Below, in pieces: positions 28,987 through 45,144 of a DNA stretch of 64,000 bases (positions are counted from its first letter, which is position 1; the number at the start of each line of letters is the position of its first letter). The stretch lies in contig NZ_KE384549.1 of NCBI RefSeq assembly GCF_000426645.1, positions 339,001 through 403,000 of the forward strand, written 5' to 3'. The notes beneath the pieces were generated by a model, which was not told the origin of the DNA, made no database searches, and saw only the letters and a program-made list of their open reading frames with translations. The translations under genes were made by a program, and so were the position numbers. This DNA is from Nakamurella lactea DSM 19367 (GTDB lineage Bacteria; Actinomycetota; Actinomycetes; Mycobacteriales; Nakamurellaceae).

Positions 28987-30894
28987 TCAGGGCACGGGGT
29001 CCACCAGGATCCGGGAGATGGCGTCCAGCACCGCGGTGTCCTCGATGGTTCCGGGCACCGGAGCGTCGACGCCGTCGGCGATCTGACGCATGGTCCGGCG
29101 CAGGATCTTGCCGGATCTGGTCTTCGGCAGGCCGGCAACGATGTCGATCCGGCGGAGCGAGGCGACCGCGCCCACCTCGTCCCGGACCCGCTGCACCAGT
29201 TCCGCGCGCAGCCGTTCGACGGCCGCCTCGTCCAGATCGGAAGCCCCGGACTTGAGGACCACCAGGCCGCGCGGCACCTGCCCCTTGAGCTGGTCGGCGA
29301 CGCCGATCACGGCGCACTCGGCGACCAACGGGTGCCCGGCCAGGGCGGCCTCCAGCGCGCCCGTTGAGAGCCGGTGCCCGGCGACGTTGAGCACATCGTC
29401 GGTGCGGCCCATGATCCACAGATATCCGTCGGCGTCCAGATGTCCGCCGTCACCGGAGGAGTAGTAGCCGGGGAAGGCGGACAGGTAGGACGCGACGTAG
29501 CGGTCGTCGTCACCCCAGAGCGTCGGCAGGGTGCCAGGCGGCAACGGAAGTTCGATGCAGACCGCGCCCTCGGTGCCCGGCGCCGCCGGGTTGCCCCGCT
29601 CGTCCAGCACCCGGACGGCATAGCCGGGGACGGGCATGGTCGCCGATCCGGGTTTGATGTCGAAGGTCTGCAGGCCCACTGGATTGGCGGCGATCGGCCA
29701 GCCGGTCTCGGTCTGCCACCAGTTGTCGATCACCGGGACGCCCAGCAGGTCGGTGGCCCACTGCCAGGTGTCCGGGTCGAGCCGCTCGCCGGCCAGGAAC
29801 AGTGTCCGCAGGCTGGACAGGTCGCGCCCGGCCAGTAGGGCGCCGTCCGGGTCGTCCCGTTTGATCGCCCGGATTGCGGTCGGCGCGGTGAACATGCCCG
29901 CCACCCGGTGTTCGTCCACCACCCGCCAGAAGGCGGAGGCATCCGGCGTACCAATGGGTTTGCCCTCGTAGAGCACTGTGGTGCAGCCGGTGAGCAGGGG
30001 GGCGTAGACGATGTAGGAGTGGCCGACCACCCAGCCGACGTCGGAGGCGGTGAACCAGACGTCGCCAGGCTGCATGCCGAAGATGTTGGTCATCGACCAG
30101 CGCAGCGCCACCGCATGCCCGCCGTTGTCCCGGACGATGCCCTTGGGGCGTCCGGTGGTGCCGGACGTGTACAGGATGTAGAGCGGGTCGGTGGCAGCCA
30201 CCGGCACGCAGTCGATGACACCCTCGCCCTCGGCCGGAAGTGCGGTGGCCCAGTCGATATCGCGGTCTCCGAGGATGGCGGTCGCCTGCGGTCTGGCCAC
30301 CACGATCACCGACGACGGCTGGTGCCGGGAGCGCGCGAGCGCCGCGTCGACCATCGGCTTGTACTCGATCACCCGATCGCGCTCGATGCCGCAGGTCGTC
30401 GTCACCAGCGCGGTCGGTTGTGCATCGTCGATCCGGGCGGCGAGTTCGGCGGGAGCGAAGCCGCCGAACACCACCGAGTGCACGGCGCCGATCCGGGCAC
30501 AGGCCAGCATGGTGATGACTGCCTCCGGAATCATCGGTAGGTAGATCACCACCCGGTCGCCGCGGCCGACGCCCTGGGCGGCGAGCATCCCGGCCGCCCG
30601 CCGCACCAGGTCCAGCAGCTCGCGGTAGCTGTAGCTGGTGACCGTCCCGGTCACCGGGCTGTCGTGGATCAGCGCCGGTTGGTCGCCGCGGCCGGCGGCA
30701 ACGTGCCGGTCCAGCGCGTTGAAGCAGGTGTTGAGGGTGGCATCGGGGAACCAGCGGTAGAACGGCGGACTGCTCGCGTCCAGCGCCGCCGCCGGTGGCC
30801 GCACCCAGTCGATGTCCAGCGCCGCGTCGAGCCAGAACCCCTCCGGATCGGACAGGCTGCGTCGGTACGCGTCGGAGTAGGCGCCGTTGCTCAT
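28987..30894 (-). CDS. prpE: Propionyl-CoA synthetase (AMP-forming)
   Basis: 635 residues from ATG 30894. The PrpE-type N-terminus (DPEGFWLDAALDIDW, PPFYRWFPDATLNTCFNALDRH) is followed by the AMP-binding motif YTSGTTGRPKG, the NWWQTETGWP motif and the C-terminal catalytic Lys in LPKTRSGKILRR, where acetylation commonly silences the enzyme. It activates propionate, and possibly other short acids, to the CoA thioester in the cytoplasm. It is a single gene, divergent from the sugar ABC regulon, with the 21-bp tandem repeats immediately upstream. No methylcitrate-cycle genes are nearby. Confidence 0.92.
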   Translation of the reverse strand: MSNGAYSDAYRRSLSDPEGFWLDAALDIDWVRPPAAALDASSPPFYRWFPDATLNTCFNALDRHVAAGRGDQPALIHDSPVTGTVTSYSYRELLDLVRRAAGMLAAQGVGRGDRVVIYLPMIPEAVITMLACARIGAVHSVVFGGFAPAELAARIDDAQPTALVTTTCGIERDRVIEYKPMVDAALARSRHQPSSVIVVARPQATAILGDRDIDWATALPAEGEGVIDCVPVAATDPLYILYTSGTTGRPKGIVRDNGGHAVALRWSMTNIFGMQPGDVWFTASDVGWVVGHSYIVYAPLLTGCTTVLYEGKPIGTPDASAFWRVVDEHRVAGMFTAPTAIRAIKRDDPDGALLAGRDLSSLRTLFLAGERLDPDTWQWATDLLGVPVIDNWWQTETGWPIAANPVGLQTFDIKPGSATMPVPGYAVRVLDERGNPAAPGTEGAVCIELPLPPGTLPTLWGDDDRYVASYLSAFPGYYSSGDGGHLDADGYLWIMGRTDDVLNVAGHRLSTGALEAALAGHPLVAECAVIGVADQLKGQVPRGLVVLKSGASDLDEAAVERLRAELVQRVRDEVGAVASLRRIDIVAGLPKTRSGKILRRTMRQIADGVDAPVPGTIEDTAVLDAISRILVDPVP

Positions 30895-31030: not shown

Positions 31031-31085
31031 TTGACAGCGGTCCGGGACTGGCGGCATGATCGGCAAACTGTAAACGTTTACAGTT
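31031..31085 (+). promoter_or_regulatory. Sigma70-type promoter overlapped by a 20-bp LacI-type operator
   Basis: TTGACA (31031-31036), an 18-nt spacer and CATGAT (31055-31060) form a promoter. AACTGTAAACGTTTACAGTT (31066-31085) is a perfect palindrome with the central CG typical of LacI-family operators, lying at the expected transcription start. The LacI gene at 37005 in the same gene run is the obvious candidate regulator. The first permease gene starts 50 bp downstream. Confidence 0.8.
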
Positions 31086-31134: not shown

Positions 31135-32061
31135 ATGGCAGTGACGACTGCGCCGGCTCCGCCGACCGCGAGGCCGAAGGCCAAACGCGCCTCGAGCAAC
31201 CAGCGGCCGATGTGGTGGCTGTTGCTGCCCAGCCTGATCCCGGTGATCGCGTTCAGCGTCTACCCGTTGCTGAACGGCATCTGGCTCGGGTTCACCGATG
31301 CGCGCGCCGGGTACCAGGTCCCGTTCGCCTTCAACGGGGTCGACAACTACCAGCGGCTGTTCCACGACGTGTTCTTCTGGGACTCGTTCAAGATCGGGCT
31401 GATCTGGGCCTTCAGCGTCACCGTCCTGCAGTTCCTGCTCAGCCTGGGCCTGGCCCTGCTGTTGAACGCAGGCTTGCGGTTCCAGTGGCTGATCCGCCCG
31501 CTGGCGCTGATCCCGTGGGCGATGCCGTCGGTGATCGTGGCGATCCTGTGGAAGCTGATCTACCTGCCGGACGCCGGCATCCTGAACGCCTTCCTGCGCG
31601 GCATCGGGCTGATCGACACCAACATCAACTGGCTGGGCAGCTTCAACCTGGCGCTGCCGGCGGTGATCGTCGTGGGGGTCTGGGCCGGCATGCCACAGAC
31701 CACCATCGCGCTGCTGGCCGGCCTGCAGAACACCTCGATGGACCTGCACGAGGCGGCCGCGCTGGACGGAGCCGGTGCCTGGCAACGGTTCCGCACCGTC
31801 ACCCTGCCGGCCCTCAAACCGGTGATCATCGCGATCACCTCGCTGGACTTCGTCTGGAACTTCAACTCGTTCGGCCTGGTCTACGTGCTCACCGAGGGCG
31901 GGCCCGGCCGCAGCACCATGCTGCCGATGTTGTTCGCCTACCAGAGTGCCTTCGGCAGCGGCGAGTTCGGCTACGCGGCCGCGTTGGGCAACGCGATGGT
32001 GGTGGTGATCATGGCCATCCTCGGTGTGTACCTGTGGCGGCAGATGCGGGAGGCGAACTGA
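31135..32061 (+). CDS. Sugar ABC transporter permease (MalF/UgpA type)
   Basis: 308 residues from ATG 31135. After a basic Pro/Ala-rich N-terminus there are six transmembrane segments starting at WWLLLPSLIPVIAFSVYPLL. The coupling EAA loop reads EAAALDGAGAWQRFRTVTLP. This is the first of two permeases of a carbohydrate uptake 1 family importer. It is the first gene of the regulon after the palindromic operator, and its TGA overlaps the ATG of the second permease (TGATG at 32059-32063). No ATPase gene follows, so a shared MsmK/MsiK-type ATPase elsewhere is expected, as is common in actinobacteria. Confidence 0.93.
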   Translation: MAVTTAPAPPTARPKAKRASSNQRPMWWLLLPSLIPVIAFSVYPLLNGIWLGFTDARAGYQVPFAFNGVDNYQRLFHDVFFWDSFKIGLIWAFSVTVLQFLLSLGLALLLNAGLRFQWLIRPLALIPWAMPSVIVAILWKLIYLPDAGILNAFLRGIGLIDTNINWLGSFNLALPAVIVVGVWAGMPQTTIALLAGLQNTSMDLHEAAALDGAGAWQRFRTVTLPALKPVIIAITSLDFVWNFNSFGLVYVLTEGGPGRSTMLPMLFAYQSAFGSGEFGYAAALGNAMVVVIMAILGVYLWRQMREAN

Positions 32062-32894
32062 TGCGCACCCGCCCGCTCACCAGGGTCGGCCAGTACGTCG
32101 CGCTGGCCTGCTACGTGGTGTTCCTCGGCTTTCCGCTGCTCTGGCTGTTCTCCACCGCGTTCAAGTCCCAGCAGGAACTGATCACCTTGCACCCGACGCT
32201 GTTCCCGCGGCACTGGTCGCTGGACAGCTTCCGCACCGCGCTGGACAACACCGAGGTCTGGTCGTCACTGAAGAACTCGCTGGTGGTCGCGGTGGCAACG
32301 GCGATCATCACCACCTTGATCGCGTTGCCGGCCGCCTACGCCCTGGCCAGGGGGCGCAGCATCGTGCGCACCGTGTCGATCGGCTGGATCCTGGTCAGCC
32401 AGGTGTTCCCGTTCGTGCTGATCGTCATCCCGGTTTTCATCGTGCTGCGGAACCTGGGGCTACTCAACACCCTGGTCGGTCTGGTGCTCATCTACGTGGT
32501 GTGGGCGCTGCCCTTCACCCTGTGGATGCTGCAGGGATACGTCACCGCGATCCCGCGCGAACTGGAGGAGGCGGCCGCCACCGACGGCGCCTCCCGGTTC
32601 GCCACCCTGCGCAAGATCGTTTTCCCGTTATTGATGCCGGGCATCGTGGCGACCTCGATGTTCGCCTTCATCTCGGCCTGGAACGAGTTCTTCTTCGCGC
32701 TGGTGATCATCACCGATCCGGCGAAACAGACGGCGCCGTTGCTGTTGGCCAGATACGTCGGCAGCGAGGGCTCGGTCAACCTCGGCCCGCTGGCCGCCAC
32801 CGCCCTCATCACCACCCTGCCGAGCCTGCTGATCTTCGGCATCATCCAACGAAAGCTGGTGGCCGGCCTGATGTCCGGTTCTGTCAAGGGCTGA
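32061..32894 (+). CDS. Sugar ABC transporter permease (MalG/UgpE type)
   Basis: 277 residues from ATG 32061, the normal size for the second permease. It begins with an N-terminal membrane segment (LACYVVFLGFPLLWLFSTAF) and carries the EAA loop ELEEAAATDGASRFATLRKI followed by VFPLLMPGI. It forms the membrane channel with the upstream permease. The start codon overlaps the preceding stop. The solute-binding gene follows after 74 bp, a spacing that may allow extra expression of the binding protein. Confidence 0.93.
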   Translation: MRTRPLTRVGQYVALACYVVFLGFPLLWLFSTAFKSQQELITLHPTLFPRHWSLDSFRTALDNTEVWSSLKNSLVVAVATAIITTLIALPAAYALARGRSIVRTVSIGWILVSQVFPFVLIVIPVFIVLRNLGLLNTLVGLVLIYVVWALPFTLWMLQGYVTAIPRELEEAAATDGASRFATLRKIVFPLLMPGIVATSMFAFISAWNEFFFALVIITDPAKQTAPLLLARYVGSEGSVNLGPLAATALITTLPSLLIFGIIQRKLVAGLMSGSVKG

Positions 32895-32968
32895 GCCCGG
32901 CCGGCAGCCGCAGCTGAACGCACGATCACCACCGCAGCCCCGTCATCCCGAACTCGAGAGGAACAAAC

Positions 32969-34270
32969 GTGAAGCGCTCAATCGCAGTCGTCGGCACCGC
33001 CCTGTGTGCCGTCCTGCTCACCGCCTGCGTCAGCAACAGCGGCGGAGGTGACACCAGCACATCGGCCGCCGGCTCACCGGCGGCCGGCGAGAAGATCAAC
33101 CTGACCTTCTCCAGCTATGCCTTCCAGGACCCGACGGTGGCGGCCACCCAGGCCATCGTCGATTCCTGGAACAAGGCGAACCCGGACATCCAGGTGCAGT
33201 ACCAGAAGGTCGACGCCGAGTCGGTGCACGACAAGTTGGTGACCCAGTTCGCCGGTAACTCCGCGCCGGACATCATCCACGACGAATCCGCCGACATCGC
33301 CGGTTTCAGCCAGCAGGGCTACCTCGCCGATCTCGGGCCGCTGCTGCCGGCCGAGCTGAAATCCGATGTGCCGGAATCGGTCTGGAAGTCGGTGACCTAC
33401 GGCGGCGTGATCACCGGGGTGCCGACGATCGCCCAGGTGTACTGCGTGTTCGCCAACACGGATCTGCTGAAGGCCGCCGGCATCGAGGTGCCGGCCGCCG
33501 ACGCGCCGTGGACCTGGGACGACCTGGCGACCAACGCCAAGAAGCTGACCAGCGGCGACGTCACCGGCTTCGCCTGGGGCCTGAAGTCGCCGGCCGCCGG
33601 CATCATGTCGTCCGGGCTGGCGTTCGACGGCACCTTCTTCTCCGGTGACGAGAAGAATCCGACGATCAAGGTCGGCGACAACGAGATGCAGGTGCCGAAC
33701 CGGATCGCCGCGATGCTGGCGGACGGATCCATGGGCAAGGATTCGATCTCGCTGTCCGGCAGCGATGTGCTGCCCGGCTTCTTCGGCGGAAAGTACGCGA
33801 TGGTGATGGCCGGCAACTATGTGGCCACCCAGATCGACGGAAAGGCGCCGTCCGGCTTCACCTGGACGATGCTGCCGCTGCTCAAGGGCACCAGCCAGCA
33901 CCAGGCGTCGAACCCGCAGACGCTCAGCGTCGCCAAGCAGAGCAAGCACCCGCAGCAGGCCGCCGACTTCATCGCCTACTTCATGAAGGCCGAGAACCTG
34001 GCCAAGATCGCCGAGGGCGACGCGCTGATCCCGGTGACCAAGTCGGCCGCCGAGATCGTCAAGAAGGACATGGGCGACAAGAACGGCTGGCCGGCGATCC
34101 TGGCCTCGGCCGACCAGTTGGTCGACGCGCCGTGGAACAAGGCGGAGAAATTCCCGGACTGGAAGTCGAAGATCGCCAATCCGTCGTACCAGCAGTTCCT
34201 GGCCGGCAAGTTGGACGCAGCCGGGTTGGCCAAGGCGTTGGGCGACGGCTGGGCCACCGTCGGCGGCTGA
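32969..34270 (+). CDS. Sugar ABC transporter substrate-binding lipoprotein (family 1)
   Basis: 433 residues from ATG 32969 (GAGAGG 8-10 nt upstream). The signal peptide ends in lipobox L17-T-A-C20, followed by a Ser/Gly/Thr linker; the mature protein is membrane-tethered outside the cell. The pattern NLTFSSYAFQDP ... WNKANPDIQVQYQKV and the closing PSYQQFLAGKLDAAGLAKALGDGW fit the extracellular solute-binding family 1 used for sugars and polyols. Ligand unknown. It captures the substrate for the two upstream permeases. Confidence 0.92.
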   Translation: MKRSIAVVGTALCAVLLTACVSNSGGGDTSTSAAGSPAAGEKINLTFSSYAFQDPTVAATQAIVDSWNKANPDIQVQYQKVDAESVHDKLVTQFAGNSAPDIIHDESADIAGFSQQGYLADLGPLLPAELKSDVPESVWKSVTYGGVITGVPTIAQVYCVFANTDLLKAAGIEVPAADAPWTWDDLATNAKKLTSGDVTGFAWGLKSPAAGIMSSGLAFDGTFFSGDEKNPTIKVGDNEMQVPNRIAAMLADGSMGKDSISLSGSDVLPGFFGGKYAMVMAGNYVATQIDGKAPSGFTWTMLPLLKGTSQHQASNPQTLSVAKQSKHPQQAADFIAYFMKAENLAKIAEGDALIPVTKSAAEIVKKDMGDKNGWPAILASADQLVDAPWNKAEKFPDWKSKIANPSYQQFLAGKLDAAGLAKALGDGWATVGG

Positions 34271-34333
34271 GCCGTTCCCGAACGGCCGGCCGACCAGACA
34301 TCAACAGCGACACCGCAAGGACACCGAATCACC

Positions 34334-35524
34334 ATGAATTCACTGCAGGACAAGGCCATCGGCACCCTGATGGCGGCCGCCGTCGGCGACGCCATCGGCG
34401 GGGCGACGGAAGGCCGCAGCGCCGAGGAGATCCGCGAGCGGTACGACGGTCCGGTCGAAGGAATCGTCGACTACTTCATGACGGACTGGCGCACCGCGAA
34501 GCCGATGTCGCCGTACTTCAAGGGCGACGGGCACGTCACCGACGACACGTTGATGACGAACCTGTTGGTCCAGGTCTACGACAAGCGGCGGCGTCATCTG
34601 ACGCCGTTCGACCTGGCCGACGATCTGGTGCCGCTGATGATGAACCAGCTCACCTGGATCCCCGAGCTGGAGCGGGAGGCGGTGCCGATCCTGCGGGTGT
34701 TCCTGGCCGAGAAGTGGTTGGTGACCAGGCTTCACTACGGGCACGTCGACCCGCGGGAGGCCGGCGTCGGCAACGTGGTGAACTGCGGCGCGGCGATGTA
34801 CATGGCACCGGTCGGGATCGCGAACGCGGGCGATCCGGCCGGTGCCTACGCCGAGGCGGCCGACGTGGCCGGTGCCCACCAGTCCAGCTACGGGCGGGAG
34901 GCGGCGGCGGTGTTCGCCGCCGCCGTCGCCGCCGCGCTGACGCCCGGCATCGATCTCGACGGCGTCTTCGACGCCGTGCTCGGGCTGGCGCGGGACGGTA
35001 CCCGGGATGCGATCGAAGCCGTGCTTGCGGCCGCCGACGGGGTTGACGACGGCGACTGGCTGGGCGCCATTCCGGTGCTGCGGCAGGCGATCACGCCGTT
35101 CGACTCGGTCGGCGAGCTGTATCGCGAACCGGCCCAGGATTCGCGACGGCCCAGCCGGTTGCGGGCCATCGAGGAGCTGCCGGTGGCGCTCGGCTTCCTG
35201 GCGGTGACCGGCGGTGACGTGCGCGGCAGCATTCTCGGGGCCACCAACTACGGCCGCGACTCGGACTCGATCGCCACCATGGGCGGGGCCATCGCCGGCG
35301 CGCTCGGTGGCGAGGCCGCGGTGCCGGCCGACTGGGCGGAGGCGGTGGCCACCAACTCGAGGCTGGATCTGCACGCCGGCGGGCTGACGATGGCCGCGGT
35401 GGCCCGCGAGATCCAGGCCGCCGACGCGGCGGCGTTCGCCCGGCGGGCCAAGGCCTTTGCCGCGCTGACCGCGACTGCGACCGAGCCGGCCGGAACGAGC
35501 CCCGCCGAGGTGACCTCGGCGTGA
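34334..35524 (+). CDS. ADP-ribosylglycohydrolase (ARH)-family protein, first copy
   Basis: 396 residues from ATG 34334. The ARH signature is complete: an N-terminal GTLMAAAVGDAIGGATEGR, the metal-binding DDT in GHVTDDTLMTN and the C-terminal GATNYGRDSDSIATMGGAIAG with the paired Asp of the dinuclear Mg site. Classical members remove ADP-ribose from proteins or nucleosides; many bacterial homologues in sugar clusters have other, unknown glycosidic substrates. Its placement directly after a sugar importer favours a metabolic N- or O-glycoside substrate (inference). It overlaps the second ARH gene by 4 nt (GTGA). Confidence 0.9.
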   Translation: MNSLQDKAIGTLMAAAVGDAIGGATEGRSAEEIRERYDGPVEGIVDYFMTDWRTAKPMSPYFKGDGHVTDDTLMTNLLVQVYDKRRRHLTPFDLADDLVPLMMNQLTWIPELEREAVPILRVFLAEKWLVTRLHYGHVDPREAGVGNVVNCGAAMYMAPVGIANAGDPAGAYAEAADVAGAHQSSYGREAAAVFAAAVAAALTPGIDLDGVFDAVLGLARDGTRDAIEAVLAAADGVDDGDWLGAIPVLRQAITPFDSVGELYREPAQDSRRPSRLRAIEELPVALGFLAVTGGDVRGSILGATNYGRDSDSIATMGGAIAGALGGEAAVPADWAEAVATNSRLDLHAGGLTMAAVAREIQAADAAAFARRAKAFAALTATATEPAGTSPAEVTSA

Positions 35525-37008
35525 AGCGGGTGACCTGGGTCCAGCCGGAGGATCTGCTCCGGCACGAACTGTTGCAGTCGACGCAGGAGGGCAAGGACGT
35601 CGCCGCGGTTCGTCAGACCTGGAGTACTGCAGGGTATTCGGTTGATCCACCGGTCGGCGGGGTCTCGCCGGAACCGGCCGGACCGGCCGAGCGGGCGCTC
35701 GCCGGACGGCTACTGGACGAGCTGGCGCGGCTGCCCGATTCGACCGCGCTCGATGAACCCAGCGACTGGCCCGGGATCCTGGCCACCATGCCACCGCTCG
35801 GCCGGGACAACCGCGCTACGCCCCGTTCGCCCGGCACAGCGAAGCGAGGACACGAAGGCGGCGACGAAGGAGTCCCCTTCGTGGCCGCAGTCGAGCGCGG
35901 CCGGCCGAACCAAACGATACAGCCCGACCGGATCAAGGGCGCGTGGCTGGGCCGGGCGGTCGGCTGCGTACTGGGCAAGCCGGTGGAGAAGGTCCCGCGG
36001 GCCGGGATCGAGGAGATCTTGCGGTCCACCGGCCGCTGGCCGCTGCGCCGCTACTTCACCGCCGTCGGGCTGGATCCGCTGGTCGCCCAGCGGTGGCCGT
36101 GGAACCGGGCCAGCAGGCCGACCAGCCTCGAGGAGAACATCGACGGCACTCCTGAGGATGACGACATCAACTACACGTTGATGGCGCTGCGGACCCTGGA
36201 ACACCACGGTGCCGACTTCGACGCCGGCGACGTGGCCACCGGCTGGCTGTTGGACCTGCCGGCCGGTCGGGCCTTCACCGCCGAGCGGATCGCCTACCGG
36301 AACCTGTTGTCCGGCATCGAACCGCCGCGCACCGCCACCGTCGGCAACCCGTTCCGGGAGTGGATCGGGGCCCAGATCCGCACCGACCTCTACGGCTGGG
36401 TGAACCCGGGCAACCCGCTGCGGGCGGCCGAATGGGCCTGGCGGGACGCCAGCGTCAGCCACACCCGCAACGGCCTGTACGGCGCGATGTTCGTCGGGGC
36501 GATGGCTGCTGCGGCGGTTGCGGTCGACGGGTCCGATGCCGCCGCGGTTGAGCGGGTGTTGGACGTCGGGGCCTCGGTCGTGCCGCCGGCCAGCCGGATG
36601 GCGGCGGCGATCGCCCTCGGCCGTCGACTCGGCGCCGCCGGCATTCCGCCCGCCGAGGCGTACGCCGCGTTGGAGGCGGAGTTCGCCGGCCTGCACTGGG
36701 TGCACGCGCTGAACAACTCGGCCCTGGTCGCCTATGCGCTGACGGCCGGCCGCGGCAGCTTCGACCAGGCGATCTGTCTGACCGTCACCGGCGGGTGGGA
36801 CACCGACTCGAACGGGGCCACCGTCGGCGCGGTGATGGGAGCGGTGACCGGCGCCGCCGGCATCCACCCGTACTGGACGGATCCGTTGCGCGGGCGGGTG
36901 TCCAGCTCGATTCCAGGGTGCGACGGAGCGACCTTCTCGGAGCTGACGGCGCGAACGCTGGCCGTCGCCGAACGGGTCTCGTCATCCCCGGTGGTGACGG
37001 TGCGATGA
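35521..37008 (+). CDS. ADP-ribosylglycohydrolase (ARH)-family protein, second copy with N-terminal extension
   Basis: 495 residues from GTG 35521. The ARH core begins only near residue 139 (IKGAWLGRAVGCVLGKPVEK) and carries the metal motifs as EDDDINYTLM and GGWDTDSNGATVGAVMG. The first 138 residues are an extension absent from the preceding ARH protein; residues about 85-130 (35800-35910) look like low-complexity, intergenic-type sequence with GAAGG/CCTTC arms. The two ARH proteins are diverged, so they are probably not redundant. The TGA overlaps the ATG of the LacI gene. Confidence 0.88.
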   Translation: MKRVTWVQPEDLLRHELLQSTQEGKDVAAVRQTWSTAGYSVDPPVGGVSPEPAGPAERALAGRLLDELARLPDSTALDEPSDWPGILATMPPLGRDNRATPRSPGTAKRGHEGGDEGVPFVAAVERGRPNQTIQPDRIKGAWLGRAVGCVLGKPVEKVPRAGIEEILRSTGRWPLRRYFTAVGLDPLVAQRWPWNRASRPTSLEENIDGTPEDDDINYTLMALRTLEHHGADFDAGDVATGWLLDLPAGRAFTAERIAYRNLLSGIEPPRTATVGNPFREWIGAQIRTDLYGWVNPGNPLRAAEWAWRDASVSHTRNGLYGAMFVGAMAAAAVAVDGSDAAAVERVLDVGASVVPPASRMAAAIALGRRLGAAGIPPAEAYAALEAEFAGLHWVHALNNSALVAYALTAGRGSFDQAICLTVTGGWDTDSNGATVGAVMGAVTGAAGIHPYWTDPLRGRVSSSIPGCDGATFSELTARTLAVAERVSSSPVVTVR

Positions 37009-38006
37009 CCGCCCGCCGCCCCACGGTGGTTCAGGTCGCCGAGCGGGCGCACGTCTCGATCGCCACCGTCTCCCGGGTGCTGAACGGCAAGCTCGCCCGG
37101 CCGTCCAGCACCGAGCGGGTGCTGGCCGCTGCGGCCGAGCTGGGATACGTGCCGGACGCCACCGGCCGGTCCCTGCGGATGGGTCGATCGTTGCAGATCG
37201 CCTTCGCCGTCGACGATGTCGGCAACCCGGTCTACACCGAGATGCTCAGCGGCGTCGAGGACGGGATGGCCGGATCCGGTAGCCGCCTGTCGGTCGCCTC
37301 CACCGGACACAATCCGGCGGATCTGATGGCGCTCATCGATGAGTTGTCCCGTGGCTACGCCGACGGCCTGATCATCAGCCCACTGCGTCGCACACCGGAG
37401 CTGATCCAGGCCTTGGTCGACGCAGCCGTGCCCACGGTGGTGGTCGGCTCGCTGGATGCCGGCGCCCCGTTGGACACCGTCCGGATCGACTCCGGGCTCG
37501 GCGTCCGGCAGGCCTACGAGCACCTGGTCGACACCGGACGCCGCCGGATCGCCTTCGTCGGCGGGCCGCCCGACACCGCACCCGGCTCCGCCCGGCTCAA
37601 CGCATTCCGCCTGGCGGGCAGCGAGTTCGGCTGCGCGGGGCCGGTGGTGCAGGCGCAGGGGTTCACCGTCACCGCCGGCGAGCAGGCCTGGCTGGAACTG
37701 GCCGGCCTGACCGGCCGGCGCCGGCCGGATGCCGTGCTGGCGGCGAACGACCTGCTCGCTCTCGGGGTGATGCGGGCGGCCAAGAGCGCCGGCCGGCGGA
37801 TACCGTCGGGTCTGGCAGTGGCCGGCATCGACGACATCCAGTTCGCCCGGATCTTCTCGCCCTCACTGACCAGCGTCTCGCTGAAGGCACGGGAGCGCGG
37901 CCGGCTGGCCGCGCGGCTGCTGCTCGGCCGGATCGCGGCGCCCGGTGCACCGACGCGCACCGAACAGGTCGAACCGGAACTCATCATCCGGGAGTCGACA
38001 TCGTGA
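37005..38006 (+). CDS. LacI-family transcriptional regulator
   Basis: 333 residues from ATG 37005 (ATGA overlap). The LacI headpiece is clear: VVQVAERAHVSIATVSRVLN with the hinge-forming RSLRMGRSLQIAFAV, then a periplasmic-binding-protein-like effector domain ending ARLLLGRIAAPGAPTR. It is encoded within the gene run that begins downstream of a perfect 20-bp palindrome (31066-31085), so it is the most likely repressor of that promoter, released by the imported sugar or a breakdown product. That makes the circuit self-limiting, since its own gene is in the repressed transcript. Confidence 0.94.
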   Translation: MTARRPTVVQVAERAHVSIATVSRVLNGKLARPSSTERVLAAAAELGYVPDATGRSLRMGRSLQIAFAVDDVGNPVYTEMLSGVEDGMAGSGSRLSVASTGHNPADLMALIDELSRGYADGLIISPLRRTPELIQALVDAAVPTVVVGSLDAGAPLDTVRIDSGLGVRQAYEHLVDTGRRRIAFVGGPPDTAPGSARLNAFRLAGSEFGCAGPVVQAQGFTVTAGEQAWLELAGLTGRRRPDAVLAANDLLALGVMRAAKSAGRRIPSGLAVAGIDDIQFARIFSPSLTSVSLKARERGRLAARLLLGRIAAPGAPTRTEQVEPELIIRESTS

Positions 38007-38073
38007 GTGAGCTTGCGAACGAACCATCGGCACAGAACGAGGTCAACCCGCGAGGGACGAGCGGGGAGAGAGC

Positions 38074-40266
38074 ATGAGCGTGAGCAGGGCGGAGACGGCT
38101 GCCGCTACCGGATTCACCCTCGGTGGTGCCCGCGACGAGCGCGGTGTCGGCGTGTACTCCTCGATCGACGAGGCGTTCAACCCGTTGATCCCGCGCCCGC
38201 TGGACCGTCCGCAACAGGTACCGCTGGAACCGGACGCCGACCTGAGCGTGCTGGATGACGGGAAGATCCTCGCGGCCCCGGACGACCCCGCGCTGTGGGG
38301 TCGCTGGCGTCGGCAGATAGCCCGCTGGCGGCGGGAGGCGGCCGCCAGATTCAGCTACGACGACGCCATCTACCGGCGGCCTGACATGCAGTGGGCGGCC
38401 GAGTGTTTCGTGGTATCGCAGGTTTGGCTGTGGGACGAGCTGCTGTTCGACTGGACCACCGGGAAATTCACCCCGGACCGGCTGATCGCCGACGCCCGCC
38501 GGCGGTTCGGCGGGTTCGATGCCGTGGTGCTCTGGCACGCCTACCCGGTGATCGGCATCGACGACCGCAACCAGTGGGACTACTACCTGGACGTCGATGG
38601 GCTGGCGGAGGTGGTCGATGAGTTCCACCGGGCCGGCATCCGGGTGTTCGTCGACTACAACCCGTGGGACGTCAGCACCCGCCGGCACAACGCGGGGCCG
38701 CGGCCGGCGGCGGAGGTGGGCACGAACGGCGAGTCGCGCTCGGACATGGAGCGGCTCTCGGACATGGTGGCCGACCTGAGGTTCGACGGGGTCTTCCTGG
38801 ACACCCTGCGGGAAGGCCGTGGCGAACTGCTGGCCGGCCTGAAGTGGGCGAAGGCAGGAGTGGCGGTCGAAGGCGAATCGCGGGTCTCGGTGACCAGGAT
38901 GGTCGACCACCCGCTGTCCTGGGCCCAGTGGTTCGCCGACTCGCCCGTGCCGGGGGTGGTGCGGGCGCACTACTTCGAGCGCCGGCACATGATGCACCAT
39001 GTGCGCCGCTGGCACCGCAGCCACGCGGTGGAGATGCAGTCGGCCTGGTTCAACGGCATCGGAATGATGGTCTGGGAAGTGGTGTTCGGCGTCTGGGTCG
39101 GCTGGAACGACCGGGACGCGCAGATGCTCCGTCGGATGGCGCCGACCCAACGGGCACTCGGACACCTGTTGCGTGACGGCGTCTTCACCCCGCTCATCGA
39201 CCTGGGCGAGCAGGCGCTGGACGCCCGCGTGTTCGGGTCCAGCTTCCGCAGCGACAGCGAGACGATGCTGTGCCTGGTGAACCGGGGCGACACCGATGCC
39301 ACCGTGGCGTTGCCGGTCGACCCGACGGTGCCCTCGTACGACCTGTGGACCGGCCGGCCGGCCCCGGTGCTGGACCAGCAGGCGCAGGTGCTGGTCCCGG
39401 CGCACGGCATCGGCGGCCTGTGGTCGCCGGCTCCCGGCGCCGATACCAGCTGGCTCGACCCGACCCCGCCGACCCCGGCGACCAGCGAGTTCCGCCACCG
39501 GCTCACCGAACGGGTCCCGCCACCGGCGGTCACCGCGGCGGTGCCTCCGGTGCCGACCGTACCGGTCGATGCCGGCAGGTACACGCTGACCGTCCGATAC
39601 CGCTTCCGGGAGACCGGGATGTACGACGGCGCACCGTTCGTCGACGAGTGGAAGCCGTTGCCCCCCAGGCTGCACGACCTGCGCACGCTTGATCGGCACG
39701 TCTGGCTGGACCGGGACGTGGCGGTCGCCTGCCGCGAGGTCAGCCAGCGGCGGTTCGCGGAGTTCGTGCAGGCGACCGGATATACGCCGGCGGTGCGCGG
39801 GGTGCACGTCCCGGACTGGGTGACCCGGCTGCCGCAGGATGCGGACCCGGAGCGGCCGGTGAGTCAGGTGTCGCTGCCGGACGCGCGGGCGTTCGCGGCC
39901 TGGGTCGGTGGTCGGCTGCCGACCGAGGACGAGTGGCAACTGGCGGCCGGCCAGCCCGGTTTCGACCGACGGGAGCCGTTGGTGTGGAACCTGACCGAGA
40001 GCGAGCACACCGACGGTCGGACCCGTTTCGTGATGCTCAAGGGTGGGTCGGCATACCTGCCGACCGGTTCCCAGTGGTACTTCGACGGCGGGCCGCAGGA
40101 ACCGCAGTTCGCCGCGAAGTACCTGCTGCCGGGGCAGGGCCTGGGCCGGTCGACCAGCATCGGATTCCGGGTCGCCTGGGTGGTCGGGACCCGCGAGGCG
40201 GTGCAGCACACCAGGTTCGGTGGCTTCGGTGACGTCGGCGAGTCCGGCAGGGGTGACGGGCGATGA
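38074..40266 (+). CDS. Glycosidase-like TIM-barrel protein fused to a Cys-less SUMF1/FGE-type domain
   Basis: 730 residues from ATG 38074 (GGGGAGAGAGC upstream). Residues about 95-430 look like a glycoside-hydrolase TIM barrel: [29 protein letters not shown], and [12 protein letters not shown] with D243, then E266/E268 in VEGESR as possible acids. Residues about 510-712 form a sulfatase-modifying-factor domain: [28 protein letters not shown] (612-621), KGGSAYLP (656-663) and GFR (697-699). The copper-binding Cys pair that follows the GGS motif in true formylglycine-generating enzymes is missing; the only Cys here is C553. So the domain is not expected to make formylglycine. The family assignment of the barrel is uncertain. 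Confidence 0.75.
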
Positions 40267-41549
40267 CCGAGCCGGCCGGCGGTGCGCTCGCCGATCTGCG
40301 GGTGGTGGACGCCTCGACGCTGTTTGCCGGGCCGATGGCCGCCATGCACCTCGGCGATCTCGGAGCCGAGGTGATCAAGGTCGAGGATCCGCGGCGCCCC
40401 GACCCCGCCCGTGGCCACGGCCCGGAGAAGGACGGGCACAACATCTGGTGGAAGACGTTGGGCCGCAACAAGCGCACCGTCAGCCTCGACCTGCACACCG
40501 ACGGCGGTGCGGATGCGTTCCGGCGGCTGTGTGGATCCGCCGACGCGGTGATCGAGAATTTCCGGCCGGACACCCTGGAGAGCTGGGGACTCGGCTACCA
40601 GCAGCTGTCGGCGGACAACCCGGGCCTGGTGCTGGCCAGGGTCACCGGGTTCGGCCAGCTCGGCCCGTACCGCCGCCGGCCCGGATTCGGCACGCTGGCC
40701 GAGGCGATGAGTGGATTCGCCGCTGCCACCGGGGAGCCGGACGGGCCGCCGACGCTGCCGCCGTTCGGCCTGGCCGACGGGATCGCCTCGCTGGCAACGG
40801 CCTTCGCGGTGATGTCGGCCCTGCACCAGCGGGAGCTGACCGGCCGTGGACAGGTGGTGGATCTGGCCATCGTCGAGCCGATCATGGCGATGCTCGGGCC
40901 ACAGATCTCCCGCTGGCAATTGCTCGGCACCGCCCAGCCGCGGTTGGGCAACCGATCGGGCAACAACGCGCCGCGCAACACCTATCGCAGTCGCGACGGC
41001 CACTGGCTGGCCGTGTCGACCAGCTCCCACAGCATCGCCGAGCGCGTCGTCACGCTGGTCGGCCGGCCGGAGCTGGCCGGGCAGCCGTGGTTCGCGACCG
41101 GGCGCGGGCGGGCGGAGCACACCGACGAACTCGACGCGGCGGTCGGCGGCTGGATCGCCGCCCGCGACCGGGCCGAGGTGATCGCGGAGTTCGAGCGGGC
41201 GCAGGCAGCGGTCGCACCGATCTACACCCCGCAGGACATCGTGGCCGATCCGCAGTTCCAGGCGCTGGGCACCATCCGCACGGTCGAGGACCCCGATTTC
41301 GGCGCGATGGCCATGCAGGGCCCGTTGTTCCGGCTGTCCGACGGTGATGCGCCGACCCGTCATACCGGGCGTGAGCCGGGTGCCGACACCGACGCGGTGC
41401 TGACCGAACTCGGTTACAGCGCAGCCGAGATTGCCGAGCTGCACCGTTCCGGTGCGGCCGGTGCGGCCGGTGCGGCCGGTGGGTCCGGTGCGGCCGGTAG
41501 GCCCGCTGGGGCCGAGGTGTCCGGTGGAGCCGGAGCTTCGGGTGAGTGA
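40263..41549 (+). CDS. CaiB/BaiF-type (class III) CoA transferase
   Basis: 428 residues from ATG 40263, overlapping the preceding stop by 4 nt. The N-terminal [46 protein letters not shown] and the catalytic Asp region [14 protein letters not shown] are typical. It moves CoA between carboxylic acids. The last 35 residues are a Gly/Ala-rich tail made by a 9-bp DNA repeat (about 41449-41500) and not part of the fold. With the CitE-like lyase next to it, the pair resembles the transferase/lyase systems for citramalate or malate-type acids, but the acid here is unknown. Confidence 0.92.
41449..41500. repeat. 9-bp GGTGCGGCC tandem repeat in the CoA transferase tail
   Basis: Several consecutive GGTGCGGCC units, some imperfect, encode a Gly-Ala-Ala tail on the CoA transferase. 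They immediately precede the start of the lyase gene at 41542. In the lyase frame the same bases would give Pro-Val-Arg repeats, which is why the upstream start in that frame is rejected. Confidence 0.75.
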
Positions 41550-42420
41550 GCCGCGGGCCGCGGTCCCGCTGACATGGCTGTACGTGCCCGGCGACCGGCC
41601 GGAGCGCATCGAGAAGGCTCTCGCCTCGGCCGCCGACGTGGTGATCCTGGATCTCGAGGACGCCGTCAGCCCGGGGGCCAAGGATGCCGCCCGACGTACC
41701 GTCTCCGAATTCGCCCGGGCGGCCGACCGGCCGCTGCAGATCAGGGTGAATGCCGTCGACACCCCCTGGCATGCAGCGGATCTGGCCATGCTCGGCACCC
41801 TTCCGGCCGCGGTCGGACTGCGGCTCCCGAAGTGTGAGGACCCAGCGACGGTGGCCGAGTGCGTCGCCGCGGCCGGTGTGGTCGGCGTCGCCGCGGCCGG
41901 TGTGGCCGCCGACGGGGCGGCAGGGCGCGAGCTGCATCTGCTGGTGGAGTCCGCCCTTGGCATCGAACGGGCCTTCGACCTGGCGACCTGCAGCCCCGCT
42001 GTCGCCTCCATCGGCCTCGGCGAGGCCGACCTGCGGGCCGACCTGGCCGTGGTCGGCGACGCCGGCCTGGGCTACGCCCGCGGCCGGGTGGTGAATGCCG
42101 CCGCGGCAGCGGGTTTGCCGTCACCGTCGATGTCGGTCTACCCGAATCTTCGGGACCTGACCGGGTTGGCAGAGTCCTGCCGGCAGGGCCGGGAACTCGG
42201 ATTTCTCGGCCGGACCGCGATTCACCCGGCGCAATTGCCGGTGATCAGGCTGGCCTTCACGCCGACCGACGACGAGGTGTCGGCGGCCCGCGAGGTGGTG
42301 GCGGCGGCCGAACAGGGCGAGCAGCTCGGCCGCGGCGCACTCGCGCTGCCCGACGGCCGGTTCGTCGATGCGGCGGTGGTGCGCCGCGCCCGCGCCATCC
42401 TGTCGATCGCCCGCCCCTGA
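41542..42420 (+). CDS. HpcH/HpaI aldolase or CitE-like CoA-ester lyase
   Basis: 292 residues from GTG 41542, with GGAG 6 nt upstream and overlapping the CoA transferase stop. The CitE pattern is clear: LYVPGDRPERIEKALASAAD, the metal-binding DLEDAVSPGAK, LLVESALGIERAFDLA and GFLGRTAIHPAQLPVI. Members cleave malyl-, citramalyl- or beta-methylmalyl-CoA-type esters. A duplicated AAAGV segment near residues 110-130 forms an Ala/Gly-rich insert. The transcription unit may end here; the next gene is convergent. Confidence 0.9.
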   Translation: MSEPRAAVPLTWLYVPGDRPERIEKALASAADVVILDLEDAVSPGAKDAARRTVSEFARAADRPLQIRVNAVDTPWHAADLAMLGTLPAAVGLRLPKCEDPATVAECVAAAGVVGVAAAGVAADGAAGRELHLLVESALGIERAFDLATCSPAVASIGLGEADLRADLAVVGDAGLGYARGRVVNAAAAAGLPSPSMSVYPNLRDLTGLAESCRQGRELGFLGRTAIHPAQLPVIRLAFTPTDDEVSAAREVVAAAEQGEQLGRGALALPDGRFVDAAVVRRARAILSIARP

Positions 42421-42426
42421 CGCCGG

Positions 42427-43887
42427 TCAGGCCCAGTGGTAGCGGTGGCCGCCGAAGTTCACGTGGTGGGTCTTGAGGTGGGTGAAGGTGTCGATGCACT
42501 CCAGACCCTTGTCCTCGCCGAGGCCACTGACCTTGTGGCCCTCGTACGGGACGTTCCACTGTCCGTGGTTGGGGCAGTTGGTCCAGATGATGCCGGCCTG
42601 CAGTTGCTCGGACATCCGCATCGCCCGGCCGAGGTCGGTGGTCCACACGGTCGCGGCCAGGCCGTACTCGGTGTCGTTGGCCAACCGGACCGCCTCGGCT
42701 TCGTCGGCGAAGGTGACGATGGTGGCGACCGGGCCGAAGATCTCTTCGCGGGCGATCCGCATCTGCTGGTTGACGTCACCGAAAACCGTTGGGGTGACGA
42801 AGTACCCAGGCCGCGCGGGGTCGGTGCCGCCATCGACCAGCACCGTTGCTCCCTGCTCCTTGCCGGACTCGATGAAACCGGCGACCCGGTCCTGCTGAGT
42901 CTTGGAGACCAGCGGCCCGAGCTGGGTGCCGGCTTCCATCGGGTCGCCGACCACCAGGTTCCTCGCCCGCTGCACGTACGCAGCCCGGAACTGGTCGGCG
43001 ATGGAGTCCTGCACCAGGATCCGGGAGCTGCTGGTGCACACCTGACCGCTGTTGAAGAACGAGGTGAACAGCGAGCCCTCGATCGCCTGCTCCAGATCGG
43101 CGTCGGCGAATACCACGTTCGGCGACTTGCCGCCCAGTTCCAGGTGCACGCTCTTGATCTCTTGCGCGGAGTCCCGCAGGATCTGCCGCCCGACCTCGGT
43201 ACTGCCGGTGAAAGTGATCTTCGGAACCAACGGGTGACGGACCAGTGCGGCGCCGGTCGCCCCGTCACCGTGCACCACGTTGAGTACCCCGTCCGGTATC
43301 CCGGCCTCCAGACAGATCTTGCCGAAAAGCGCGGTGGACAACGGTGTCTGCTCGGCCATCTTGAGGACCACCGAGTTGCCGACGGCCAACGCCGGTGCGG
43401 ACTTCCAGGCGGCCAGCAGCAGCGGGAAGTTCCACGGCGCGATGGCACCGACCACGCCGTACGGGACCCGGCGGGAGTACAGCAGGTACCCGGGGTCGGC
43501 GGCGTAGGTGCGCCCGGAGACGTGCTCGGGGAGCTGGGCGAAGTAGGTGAAGGCACCGGCCGCGCCGACCACGTCGCCCTGCGCCTTGGCCAGCGGGGCG
43601 CCGCTGTCCCTGGCCTCGGTTTCGGCCAGTTCGTCGGCATGCTCCAGCAGCAGGTCGGCGACCTTCCGCATCCGGGCGGCCCGCTCGGCTGCCGGCAGGT
43701 GCTGCCAGCGGCCGTCGTCGAAGGCCGCGGCGGCGGAGGTGGCCGCGCGGTCGACGTCTTCGTCGCCGCCGAGGGCGACCTCGGTCAACACCTGGCCGGT
43801 GGCCGGCTCAACGGATTCGAAGGTCGCGCCGGACTGGGAGAGCACCTCGCGTCCGTCGATCAGATGGGCAACAGGTGATCCGGCCAT
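42427..43887 (-). CDS. NAD(P)-dependent aldehyde dehydrogenase
   Basis: 486 residues from ATG 43887, standard size. The oxyanion Asn is in IAPWNFPLL, the general base Glu in ELGGKSPNV and the catalytic Cys in NSGQVCTSSSRILV; GSTEVGRQI binds the nicotinamide coenzyme. Class resembles betaine-aldehyde/general aldehyde dehydrogenases. The gene is alone on this strand and convergent with the lyase gene at 6 bp, and divergent from the PLP-enzyme gene. The substrate is unpredictable; an aldehyde from the adjacent catabolic set is possible. Confidence 0.93.
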   Translation of the reverse strand: MAGSPVAHLIDGREVLSQSGATFESVEPATGQVLTEVALGGDEDVDRAATSAAAAFDDGRWQHLPAAERAARMRKVADLLLEHADELAETEARDSGAPLAKAQGDVVGAAGAFTYFAQLPEHVSGRTYAADPGYLLYSRRVPYGVVGAIAPWNFPLLLAAWKSAPALAVGNSVVLKMAEQTPLSTALFGKICLEAGIPDGVLNVVHGDGATGAALVRHPLVPKITFTGSTEVGRQILRDSAQEIKSVHLELGGKSPNVVFADADLEQAIEGSLFTSFFNSGQVCTSSSRILVQDSIADQFRAAYVQRARNLVVGDPMEAGTQLGPLVSKTQQDRVAGFIESGKEQGATVLVDGGTDPARPGYFVTPTVFGDVNQQMRIAREEIFGPVATIVTFADEAEAVRLANDTEYGLAATVWTTDLGRAMRMSEQLQAGIIWTNCPNHGQWNVPYEGHKVSGLGEDKGLECIDTFTHLKTHHVNFGGHRYHWA

Positions 43888-44028
43888 GGTGTCGTCCTTC
43901 GGGATGAGGTCCGGCCGATGCGAAACGAGGTTTCGCTTCGGTGTTGAATGGGTCCGAGACTACGCCGCACCCGCACGCGCGGGTACCCGCTCGCGGCGGG
44001 CATCGCACGCTGGAAAGGCAGAACGCCG

Positions 44029-45144
44029 ATGACGGACACGCCGAATGACCGGGAGTCGCCGGTCGGCCGCAGCATCGACGAGCTCGATACCCCGGTCGCG
44101 TTGCTCGATCTCGATGTGTTCGACAGCAACGCCGCCACGATCCACCGCAAGCTCGCCGACGGGGGCCTGCAGTGGCGGCCGCACAGCAAGGCCCACAAGT
44201 CCCCGGTGCTGGCCCGCCGCCAGCTGGAGCTCGGGGCGATCGGCGTCACCTGCGCCAAACTCGGCGAGGCCGAAGTGATGGCCGCGGGCGGTATTGCGGA
44301 CATCCTGGTGGCCAACCTGCTCGGCTCGCCGGCGAAATGGCGGCGGGCGGCCGACCTGCAGAGCACCGCAACGGTGACGGTCTGCGTCGACGATCAACAG
44401 CATGTCCGCTGGGCGTCGGCCGCGGCGGTGCAGGCCGGCACGGTGATCCCGCTGCTGGTCGAGGTGGACGTCGGCATGCATCGGGTCGGGGTCCGCAGCT
44501 CCGACGACGCGGTGGCACTGGCCGAGCAGATCGCGGCAACCCCCGGCGTCGAGCTGGCCGGCGTGATGGGCTACGAGGGGCATCTGCCGACGATCTGGCC
44601 GGCGGCGGAGAAGGTCGCCCAGTGCGAACAGGCGTTGTCGGTCCTGACCGACGCCGCCACCGCGATCCGGGCGGCCGGCCACCAGGTACGGCTCGTCAGC
44701 TCCGGCGGTACCGCGACCTTCGAGAGTGCCTTCGGCGTCGACGGTCTCAACGAGAGCCAGGCCGGCGGCGGCTGTCTGATGGACCGTTTCTACGCCGAGA
44801 CCTGCCACATCGACCTGCCGTTCGCGCTGACCCTGACCGCCACCACGGTGAGCGTGCAGCAGAGCGCAGTGGCGATCATCGACGCCGGGTTCAAGGCCCT
44901 CGGCACACCGGCGAACATGCAGCCGGCCCTGGTGCTGGATCGGGAAGGCGTTGCGGTCAAGGCGCTCTCGGCCGAACACGGCATCCTGGCCACCGAGGGG
45001 TCGCCGTTGCGGGTGGGTGACCGGGTGCGTCTGGTGCCGGCCTACAGCGACGCGATGGTGTACCTGCACGAGAACCTGGTCGGGCATCGCGGGGGTGTCG
45101 TCACCGAAATGATCCCGGTGGCGGGTCGCGGCAAACTGGCCTGA
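44029..45144 (+). CDS. D-threonine aldolase-type PLP enzyme (alanine racemase N-terminal fold)
   Basis: 371 residues from ATG 44029 (GGAAAGG 10 nt upstream). The PLP Lys lies in the family motif WRPHSKAHKSPVLARRQ; other conserved parts are ELDTPVALLDLDVF, VEVDVGMHRVGV and a C-terminal D-serine dehydratase-like domain with SAEHGILA and RVRLVPAYSDAMVYLHE. These proteins cleave D-threonine or D-hydroxy amino acids with a divalent metal. A His-x-Cys-type metal site in the C-terminal domain is not seen clearly. The gene is divergent from the aldehyde dehydrogenase; aldolase-derived aldehyde oxidised by that enzyme is a possible link. Confidence 0.88.
   Translation: MTDTPNDRESPVGRSIDELDTPVALLDLDVFDSNAATIHRKLADGGLQWRPHSKAHKSPVLARRQLELGAIGVTCAKLGEAEVMAAGGIADILVANLLGSPAKWRRAADLQSTATVTVCVDDQQHVRWASAAAVQAGTVIPLLVEVDVGMHRVGVRSSDDAVALAEQIAATPGVELAGVMGYEGHLPTIWPAAEKVAQCEQALSVLTDAATAIRAAGHQVRLVSSGGTATFESAFGVDGLNESQAGGGCLMDRFYAETCHIDLPFALTLTATTVSVQQSAVAIIDAGFKALGTPANMQPALVLDREGVAVKALSAEHGILATEGSPLRVGDRVRLVPAYSDAMVYLHENLVGHRGGVVTEMIPVAGRGKLA

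What the first reader, a model, noticed from the sequence alone, without database searches (positions are those of the whole stretch)
31135..42420. Possible undescribed glycoside pathway: sugar ABC + twin ARH + barrel/SUMF1 fusion + CoA transferase + CitE lyase
Nine genes on one strand, mostly with 4-nt overlaps, join uptake to two diverged ADP-ribosylglycohydrolase-family enzymes, a glycosidase-like fusion protein and a CoA transferase/lyase pair. I know of no named pathway with this set. A plausible scheme is import of a glycoside, bond cleavage by ARH-type and barrel enzymes, then conversion of an acid product to a CoA ester and its cleavage. No sugar kinase or ABC ATPase is present.
Basis: partly seen in the sequence, partly recalled or inferred. 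Interest (0 to 1): 0.75.

Follow-up and report, generated by a model that had tools for sequence, protein, structure and literature searches.

The report
Conserved actinobacterial sugar-conjugate degradation operon
A soil-type actinobacterium carries a gene set, shared with many relatives, that seems to import a sugar-acid compound and break it down with enzymes of a family usually thought to remove ADP-ribose tags, so part of that family may serve nutrition rather than signalling.

Summary
The nine genes are real and co-conserved. Of 73 fetched relatives of the fusion gene with enough flanking DNA, 72 carry all nine genes and 67 also a tenth, a ribokinase-like kinase, always on one strand in one order; in the window LacI sits in the kinase slot. 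A LacI-type palindrome precedes the first gene, its only copy in the held 5.8-Mb genome. In 27 other actinobacterial loci with both ARH genes, CoA transferase and CitE occur in 25, kinase in 20, transporter in 13, fusion gene in 7. So the core is ARH1-ARH2-kinase-CoA transferase-CitE; the fusion protein (amylase-like barrel plus SUMF1-type domain) is an add-on. A CE1-type esterase closely follows CitE in 15 of 80 loci, hinting at an ester. Eight literature searches listed no description. By synteny, S. coelicolor SCO2028-2031, discussed in print as ADP-ribosyl hydrolase candidates, probably belong here (not sequence-tested). Best reading: uptake and hydrolysis of an acylated furanoside, giving a pentose phosphate and a hydroxyacyl-CoA that CitE cleaves. 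Substrate and reactions are inferred.

The parts
31069..31082 (+). perfect LacI-type operator palindrome, 52 bp between it and the first start codon
   Evidence: only copy in the held genome at up to 1 mismatch; related palindromes before the first gene in 68 of 68 loci with at least 200 bp there (8 of 76 left out for lack of DNA; regex written, no chance control for the regex)
31135..32061 (+). ABC transporter permease, MalF/UgpA type
   Evidence: PF00528; NCBIfam, below cut-offs
32061..32894 (+). ABC transporter permease, MalG type
   Evidence: PF00528; start ATG 32061
32969..34270 (+). extracellular solute-binding protein (lipoprotein-like N terminus, my reading)
   Evidence: PF01547/PF13416; relatives of sugar-binding proteins
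34334..35524 (+). ARH1: ADP-ribosylglycohydrolase-family protein, family motifs intact
   Evidence: PF03747 144.6 bits; alignment to ARH3/MJ1187; T69 D70 D71 D309 D311 S312 in 80 of 80 rows
35521..37008 (+). ARH2: second ADP-ribosylglycohydrolase-family protein with N-terminal extension of about 135 residues
   Evidence: PF03747 158.3 bits at residues 140-449; profile matches to 2cwc, MJ1187 and DraG; E212-D215 and D427-S430 in 81 of 81 rows
37005..38006 (+). LacI-family regulator, in the slot where most relatives have the kinase
   Evidence: PF00356/PF13377; position compared
38074..40266 (+). fusion protein: (beta/alpha)8 barrel and beta-sandwich of amylase-like fold (about 78-453), then SUMF1/FGE-type domain
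40263..41549 (+). family III CoA transferase, near dicarboxylate CoA transferases
   Evidence: PF02515 379.5 bits; (succinate-hydroxymethylglutarate CoA-transferase 9br7 is second best); D172 in 84 of 84 rows
41542..42420 (+). CitE/HpcH-type C-C lyase (start GTG 41542 is my choice; ORF opens at 41431)
   Evidence: PF03328 106.2 bits; best NCBIfam model RipC, below cut-off; R105, E173, D200 (numbered from 41431) in 84 of 84 rows; start

Best explanation
A LacI-repressed catabolic operon. A maltose-type (CUT1) ABC transporter, probably driven by an ATPase encoded elsewhere, imports an acylated glycoside. ARH1 and ARH2 (up to four ARH paralogues in some other loci) hydrolyse furanosidic bonds, and the amylase-like fusion protein, where present, removes another glycosyl unit. 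A ribokinase-like kinase (in the cluster in most relatives; possibly from elsewhere in this genome) phosphorylates the released pentose, most simply ribose. An ester-bound hydroxy-dicarboxylic acid, such as 3-hydroxy-3-methylglutarate or citramalate, is loaded onto CoA by the family III transferase and split by the CitE-type lyase into acetyl-CoA and an oxoacid. Shown: gene identities, co-conservation, conserved order, intact motifs, a palindrome unique in the held genome. Inferred: every reaction, LacI binding, the pentose, the ester and the acid.
For: 72 of 73 fusion-gene loci keep all nine genes; all 73 keep one strand and order. Of 27 ARH1+ARH2 loci from a class-wide draw that are not in that set, 25 keep CoA transferase and CitE and 20 the kinase. 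The kinase is closest to ribokinase in NCBIfam (4 of 4 tested) and in the PDB (1 tested). Operator palindrome unique in the held genome. Motif residues invariant. The genome's only two PF03747 matches are these two. An ATPase with an OB_MalK domain that reads as an orphan, and a ribokinase homologue (46% identity), lie elsewhere. CE1-type esterase 131-289 bp after the CitE match in 15 of 80 loci, inside the operon in L097 and near it in L092, L146 and L154. CoA transferase near dicarboxylate transferases; CitE near RipC-type and M. tuberculosis CitE chains (which chains these are is partly recalled).
Against: No enzyme here has been assayed and no substrate is known. The kinase scores below NCBIfam's ribokinase cut-off (233-275 against 299.65 bits) and is absent from this cluster. 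63 of 80 fusion loci show no such esterase in the DNA held. Two of the 27 loci lack CoA transferase and CitE (L155, whose contig ends 1.8 kb past ARH2; L161, with over 9 kb downstream). L069 keeps only permeases, binding protein, ARH2 and fusion protein. 14 of the 27 loci show no such transporter in the DNA held, the Streptomyces-type ones among them, which leaves the source of their substrate open. The ATPase and kinase in trans are only possible partners.
Confidence: 0.58

Rival explanations
1. ADP-ribosylation turnover: the ARH proteins remove ADP-ribose from proteins, nucleic acids or metabolites, and the other genes salvage the products.
For: Family PF03747; S. coelicolor SCO2028-2031 are listed as DraG/ARH homologues, and the large number of such hydrolases is read as a sign of lively ADP-ribosylation metabolism (passages of PMC5087735 and PMC9411070).
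Against: None of the nine proteins matches an ADP-ribosyltransferase, macrodomain or Nudix family at E up to 0.001. A sugar transporter, LacI control, CoA transferase and CitE are unexplained. SCO2028 and SCO2030 gave no detectable activity on U-alpha-ADP-ribose (passage of PMC13036486), but that is one substrate only and orthology was not sequence-tested.
Confidence: 0.12
2. Salvage of modified nucleosides: the ARH proteins act as nucleosidases and the ribokinase-like enzyme traps the ribose.
For: ARH plus sugar kinase plus a nucleoside-type transporter occur together in E. coli yegTUV, itself of unknown function (passages of PMC10819704); the best NCBIfam model for LacI is RbsR, below its cut-off (173.7 against 382 bits).
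Against: The transporter is a maltose-type ABC system, not a nucleoside symporter; no base-processing enzyme among the nine; fusion protein, esterase, CoA transferase and CitE have no role in it.
Confidence: 0.13
3. Two functions under one regulator: sugar uptake and hydrolysis on one side, and an unrelated hydroxy-dicarboxylate (citramalate or itaconate-type) route on the other.
For: CoA transferase and CitE resemble itaconate/citramalate-type enzymes; L161 and L069 have the sugar part without them.
Against: CoA transferase and CitE stay with ARH1-ARH2 in 25 of 27 loci, also where transporter and fusion gene are not seen. The hydratase that an itaconate route needs (recalled) is not among the nine genes.
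Confidence: 0.1

Closest known systems
Putative DraG/ARH proteins SCO2028-SCO2031 of Streptomyces coelicolor
   Same: Four consecutively numbered ARH-family genes; in Streptomyces-type loci such as L181 four ARH genes sit with kinase, CoA transferase and CitE beside a VIT1 gene and a gltB-type gene, which fits the numbering.
   Different: In print they are candidate ADP-ribosyl hydrolases; the passages read do not mention a catabolic cluster. Identity with this cluster rests on synteny and recalled gene numbers, not on sequence.
E. coli yegTUV (GgaR regulon)
   Same: Predicted ARH-family protein, sugar kinase and transporter under one single-target repressor.
   Different: Nucleoside-type symporter instead of ABC system; a three-gene operon without CoA transferase, CitE or fusion protein; its repressor senses ADP-glucose according to PMC10819704.
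Itaconate/citramalate degradation (CoA transferase, hydratase, RipC/Ccl; M. tuberculosis Rv2498c)
   Same: CoA transferase plus CitE-type lyase; RipC is the best NCBIfam model, and RipC-type and CitE chains are among the best PDB matches (which PDB chains are RipC or Rv2498c is recalled).
   Different: RipC cut-off not reached (156.8 against 375 bits); no hydratase among the nine; joined to sugar genes.
Maltose-type (CUT1) actinobacterial sugar operons with a shared MsiK ATPase (recalled)
   Same: LacI, binding protein, two permeases, no ATPase among the nine; an ATPase that reads as an orphan elsewhere.
   Different: Downstream enzymes are ARH, CoA transferase and CitE, not classical glycosidases.

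Membership tests
ARH/DraG family (PF03747) | profile match over the curated cut-off | tested here: met
   144.6 and 158.3 bits against 26.2
ARH/DraG family (PF03747) | conserved acidic motifs at both ends of the domain (metal sites, recalled) | tested here: met
   C-terminal motif aligned to solved ARH proteins; N-terminal TDD / EDDD invariant among relatives but not aligned to a solved chain
ARH/DraG family (PF03747) | hydrolysis of ADP-ribosyl bonds | not testable with these tools
   needs an assay; two probable S. coelicolor relatives inactive on one substrate
Glycoside hydrolase family 13 (fusion protein barrel) | amylase-type barrel and C-terminal sheet domain | tested here: inconclusive
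Glycoside hydrolase family 13 (fusion protein barrel) | match to a GH13 sequence profile | tested here: not met
   only PF03781 found in Pfam at E up to 0.001
SUMF1/FGE domain (PF03781) | profile match over cut-off | tested here: met
   60 bits against 23.3, profile positions 37-126 of 255
Itaconate degradation (RipABC type) | lyase over the RipC equivalog cut-off | tested here: not met
   156.8 against 375 bits
Itaconate degradation (RipABC type) | hydratase gene in the set | tested here: not met
   none among the nine genes
Bacterial ribokinase (TIGR02152), for the kinase of relatives | score over the equivalog cut-off | tested here: not met
   233.1 to 274.8 against 299.65 bits in 4 of 4 tested; still the best model for each
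CUT1 ABC sugar operon | binding protein plus two permeases with a LacI regulator and a LacI-type palindrome | tested here: met
   binding of the regulator not tested
CUT1 ABC sugar operon | ATPase in the same cluster | tested here: not met
   none among the nine; two OB_MalK ATPases elsewhere

The most novel reading that the evidence does not exclude
A previously undescribed and widespread actinobacterial pathway in which ARH-fold enzymes serve as nutritional furanosidases rather than ADP-ribosyl erasers: an acylated ribofuranoside is dismantled to a pentose phosphate plus acetyl-CoA and an oxoacid. The orphan ARH genes SCO2028-2031 of S. coelicolor would belong to it.
Probability: 0.42. Interest if true: 0.75.

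Novelty: new variant of a known kind. Interest (0 to 1): 0.62.

Why it matters
It gives a fixed, testable gene set to a large group of ARH-family proteins that are usually annotated, and in Streptomyces discussed, as ADP-ribosylation enzymes. If right, part of that annotation is misleading, an unknown compound is used by many actinobacteria (297 loci encode a relative of the fusion protein in one collection, of which the best 80 were seen), and the ARH fold gains a catabolic role.

Tried and rejected
Literature: ten searches. Eight looked for this gene set or its parts, and none of the papers listed describes it by title or start of abstract: 8 listed of 8 holding the terms; 25 of 92; 1 of 1; 8 of 8; 15 of 70; 15 of 31; 4 of 4; 15 of 23. 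led to the S. coelicolor ARH papers, to Rv2498c (search listing only). The library holds open-licence papers only, so this is weak evidence of absence from print.

A phylum-wide search with the fusion alignment found only this genome among 396 at E 1e-30, while the contig scan found 297 loci. In one search, and, the genomes listed show at most 3 first-look candidates scored each, so I used neither as a rate.

Substrate guesses considered and left open: HMG or citramalate esters, malate, ribosides of other acids. No gene decides between them. The solved sugar-binding proteins found (best 2.7e-21) are too distant to name the ligand.

A Foldseek listing of the fusion model and a second, deeper model were not obtained: the server was busy each time. 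The low-confidence active-site loops were therefore not resolved and no catalytic residues are claimed for the fusion protein.

Mended on checking: one of the 28 ARH1+ARH2 loci, L156, is the same place as L098, so counts are given for 27; permG starts at ATG 32061, so only three junctions overlap by 4 nt. The odds did not change.
Full report
What is there. Nine genes on the + strand fill 31135-42420. Pfam identifies two maltose-type permeases, a binding protein, two ARH-family proteins, a LacI regulator, a fusion protein, a family III CoA transferase and a CitE-type lyase (in NCBIfam none of the models shown for the nine reaches its cut-off). Five of eight junctions overlap, three by 4 nt, one by 1 nt, one by 8 nt if CitE starts at GTG 41542 (my choice). 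The flanking genes point the other way: an acyl-CoA synthetase-like gene (28987-30894, named by my reading) and an aldehyde dehydrogenase (42427-43887, PF00171).

Regulation. A perfect palindrome TGTAAACGTTTACA lies at 31069-31082, 52 bp before the first start codon. At up to two mismatches it occurs once in the window and in none of 100 shuffles; at up to one mismatch it is the only copy in the held genome of 5.8 Mb in 27 contigs. Under a fixed rule (CG-centred, 7-base arms, at most 1 mismatch) palindromes of the type TGGAAACGTTTCCA or TGTAAACGWTTACA start 19-115 bp before lacI in most loci, not in L106, and before permF in L103 and L104. A looser pattern written from these hits 68 of 68 loci that had at least 200 bp before the first gene; 8 of 76 were left out for lack of DNA, and the pattern had no chance control.

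Co-conservation. A scan of one genome per species found 297 loci encoding a relative of the fusion protein; the best 80 were fetched, and their titles name organisms that I know as actinobacteria. In 73 loci with at least 8 kb upstream and 4.4 kb downstream, 72 have all nine genes, 67 also the kinase, and all 73 keep one strand and one order. Seven shorter loci were left out. Median identities to the window proteins run from 43% (binding protein) to 72% (CoA transferase). The exception is L069 (Nocardiopsis coralli), with only permeases, binding protein, ARH2 and fusion protein. Among 61 genomes of relatives, 19 had a match at E 0.001, but only 5, this genome included, had a match beyond the SUMF1-type part; the four others (L103-L106) have all nine genes, and one of them the kinase. 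In the window, L103 and L104 LacI occupies the kinase slot. L104's contig length equals that of a Nakamurella aerolata protein hit, so the window's genus is probably Nakamurella (for its lineage).

The tenth gene. The kinase is PfkB family in 3 of 3 tested, closest to ribokinase in NCBIfam (233-275 bits, below the 299.65 cut-off; 4 of 4) and in the PDB. Residues that I recall as ribose contacts of E. coli ribokinase are invariant in 71 of 71 aligned rows. This genome has a ribokinase homologue elsewhere (46%), which by my reading lies beside another sugar transporter, and an ATPase with an OB_MalK domain that reads as an MsiK-like orphan; a second such ATPase lies, by my reading, in a transporter operon of its own.

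The core. ARH2 was sought in 394 genomes of the class: 67, this one included, match at E 1e-40. Of the 84 matches listed I chose 40 regions by hand to span the scores. Twenty-eight have both ARH1 and ARH2; one, L156, repeats L098. Of the other 27, 25 have CoA transferase, 25 CitE, 20 the kinase, 13 transporter and LacI, and 7 the fusion gene. The remaining 12 of the 40 hold ARH2-like paralogues of 34-45% identity without ARH1; 6 of the 12 lie beside sugar ABC permeases. So ARH1-ARH2-kinase-CoA transferase-CitE is the core. Some loci have one or two more ARH genes before ARH1 (L181 and L145 by Pfam; L159 and L161 by my reading), giving up to four.

Streptomyces-type loci. In L181 four ARH genes, kinase, CoA transferase and CitE run between lgt/trp-like genes (my reading) and a VIT1 gene next to a gltB-type gene (VIT1 by Pfam in L181, gltB by Pfam in L149; same cluster). 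No transporter was seen between them. S. coelicolor SCO2028, 2029, 2030 and 2031 are named as uncharacterised DraG/ARH homologues (passage of PMC9411070; the first three in PMC5087735), and SCO2038 is trpX of the trp locus (start of the abstract of PMC5036795). From recalled numbering of lgt and gltB, SCO2028-2033 would be ARH x4, CoA transferase and CitE, without the kinase, as in L160 and L165. That is a synteny argument, not a sequence match. In PMC13036486, SCO2028 and SCO2030 had no detectable activity on U-alpha-ADP-ribose (passage).

An ester clue. A PF00756 esterase related to feruloyl esterases lies 131-289 bp after the CitE match in 15 of 80 fusion loci, on the other strand 2.6 kb away in L092, inside the operon between fusion gene and CoA transferase in L097, and beyond LacI in L146 and L154. 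Four different placements argue that an ester belongs to the substrate. The other 63 of the 80 show none in the DNA held.

Mechanism. Import by the ABC system; hydrolysis by ARH proteins and, where present, fusion protein and esterase; phosphorylation of a pentose; CoA activation of a hydroxy-dicarboxylate and cleavage to acetyl-CoA and an oxoacid. The transferase resembles succinate-HMG and other dicarboxylate transferases; the lyase resembles RipC and CitE chains. M. tuberculosis Rv2498c serves itaconate and leucine breakdown (title and start of abstract, PMC6689899). HMG or citramalate are therefore the leading acids, by inference only.

Known or new. Eight literature searches for this set or its parts listed no paper describing it (several lists were capped). 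E. coli yegTUV is the nearest analogue: predicted nucleoside symporter, ARH protein and sugar kinase under one repressor (passages of PMC10819704). I rate this a new variant of a known kind: a sugar-conjugate catabolic operon with an unusual and fixed enzyme set.

Noticed in passing
L171-L180, L182, L184: ARH2-like paralogues (34-45% identity) occur outside this system; 6 of 12 such loci (L173, L174, L175, L179, L180, L182) lie beside sugar ABC permeases, some with LacI and a PfkB-type kinase. ARH proteins in sugar operons may be more general.
   Followed up: partly
L159:11017-14158, L161:11209-14711, L181:10097-13835: Three ARH-family genes in a row (two extra ones and ARH1), next to ARH2 (the two extra ones of L181 by Pfam, those of L159 and L161 by my reading).
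   Followed up: partly
L058:12512-14959: Esterase with beta-propeller repeats, and by my reading a signal peptide and an LPxTG-like tail, directly after CitE; esterase relatives follow CitE in 14 other fusion loci.
   Followed up: partly
25978-28805: Genes that read as a 2Fe-2S subunit and a molybdopterin subunit of a xanthine dehydrogenase-type oxidase lie upstream of the cluster (not tested by profile).
   Followed up: no
43948-45144: A D-threonine aldolase/D-serine dehydratase-like gene follows the aldehyde dehydrogenase on the other side (my reading only).
   Followed up: no
L069:5513-12034: Minimal version in Nocardiopsis coralli: permeases, binding protein, ARH2 and fusion gene without ARH1, CoA transferase, CitE, LacI or kinase in the DNA held.
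   Followed up: partly
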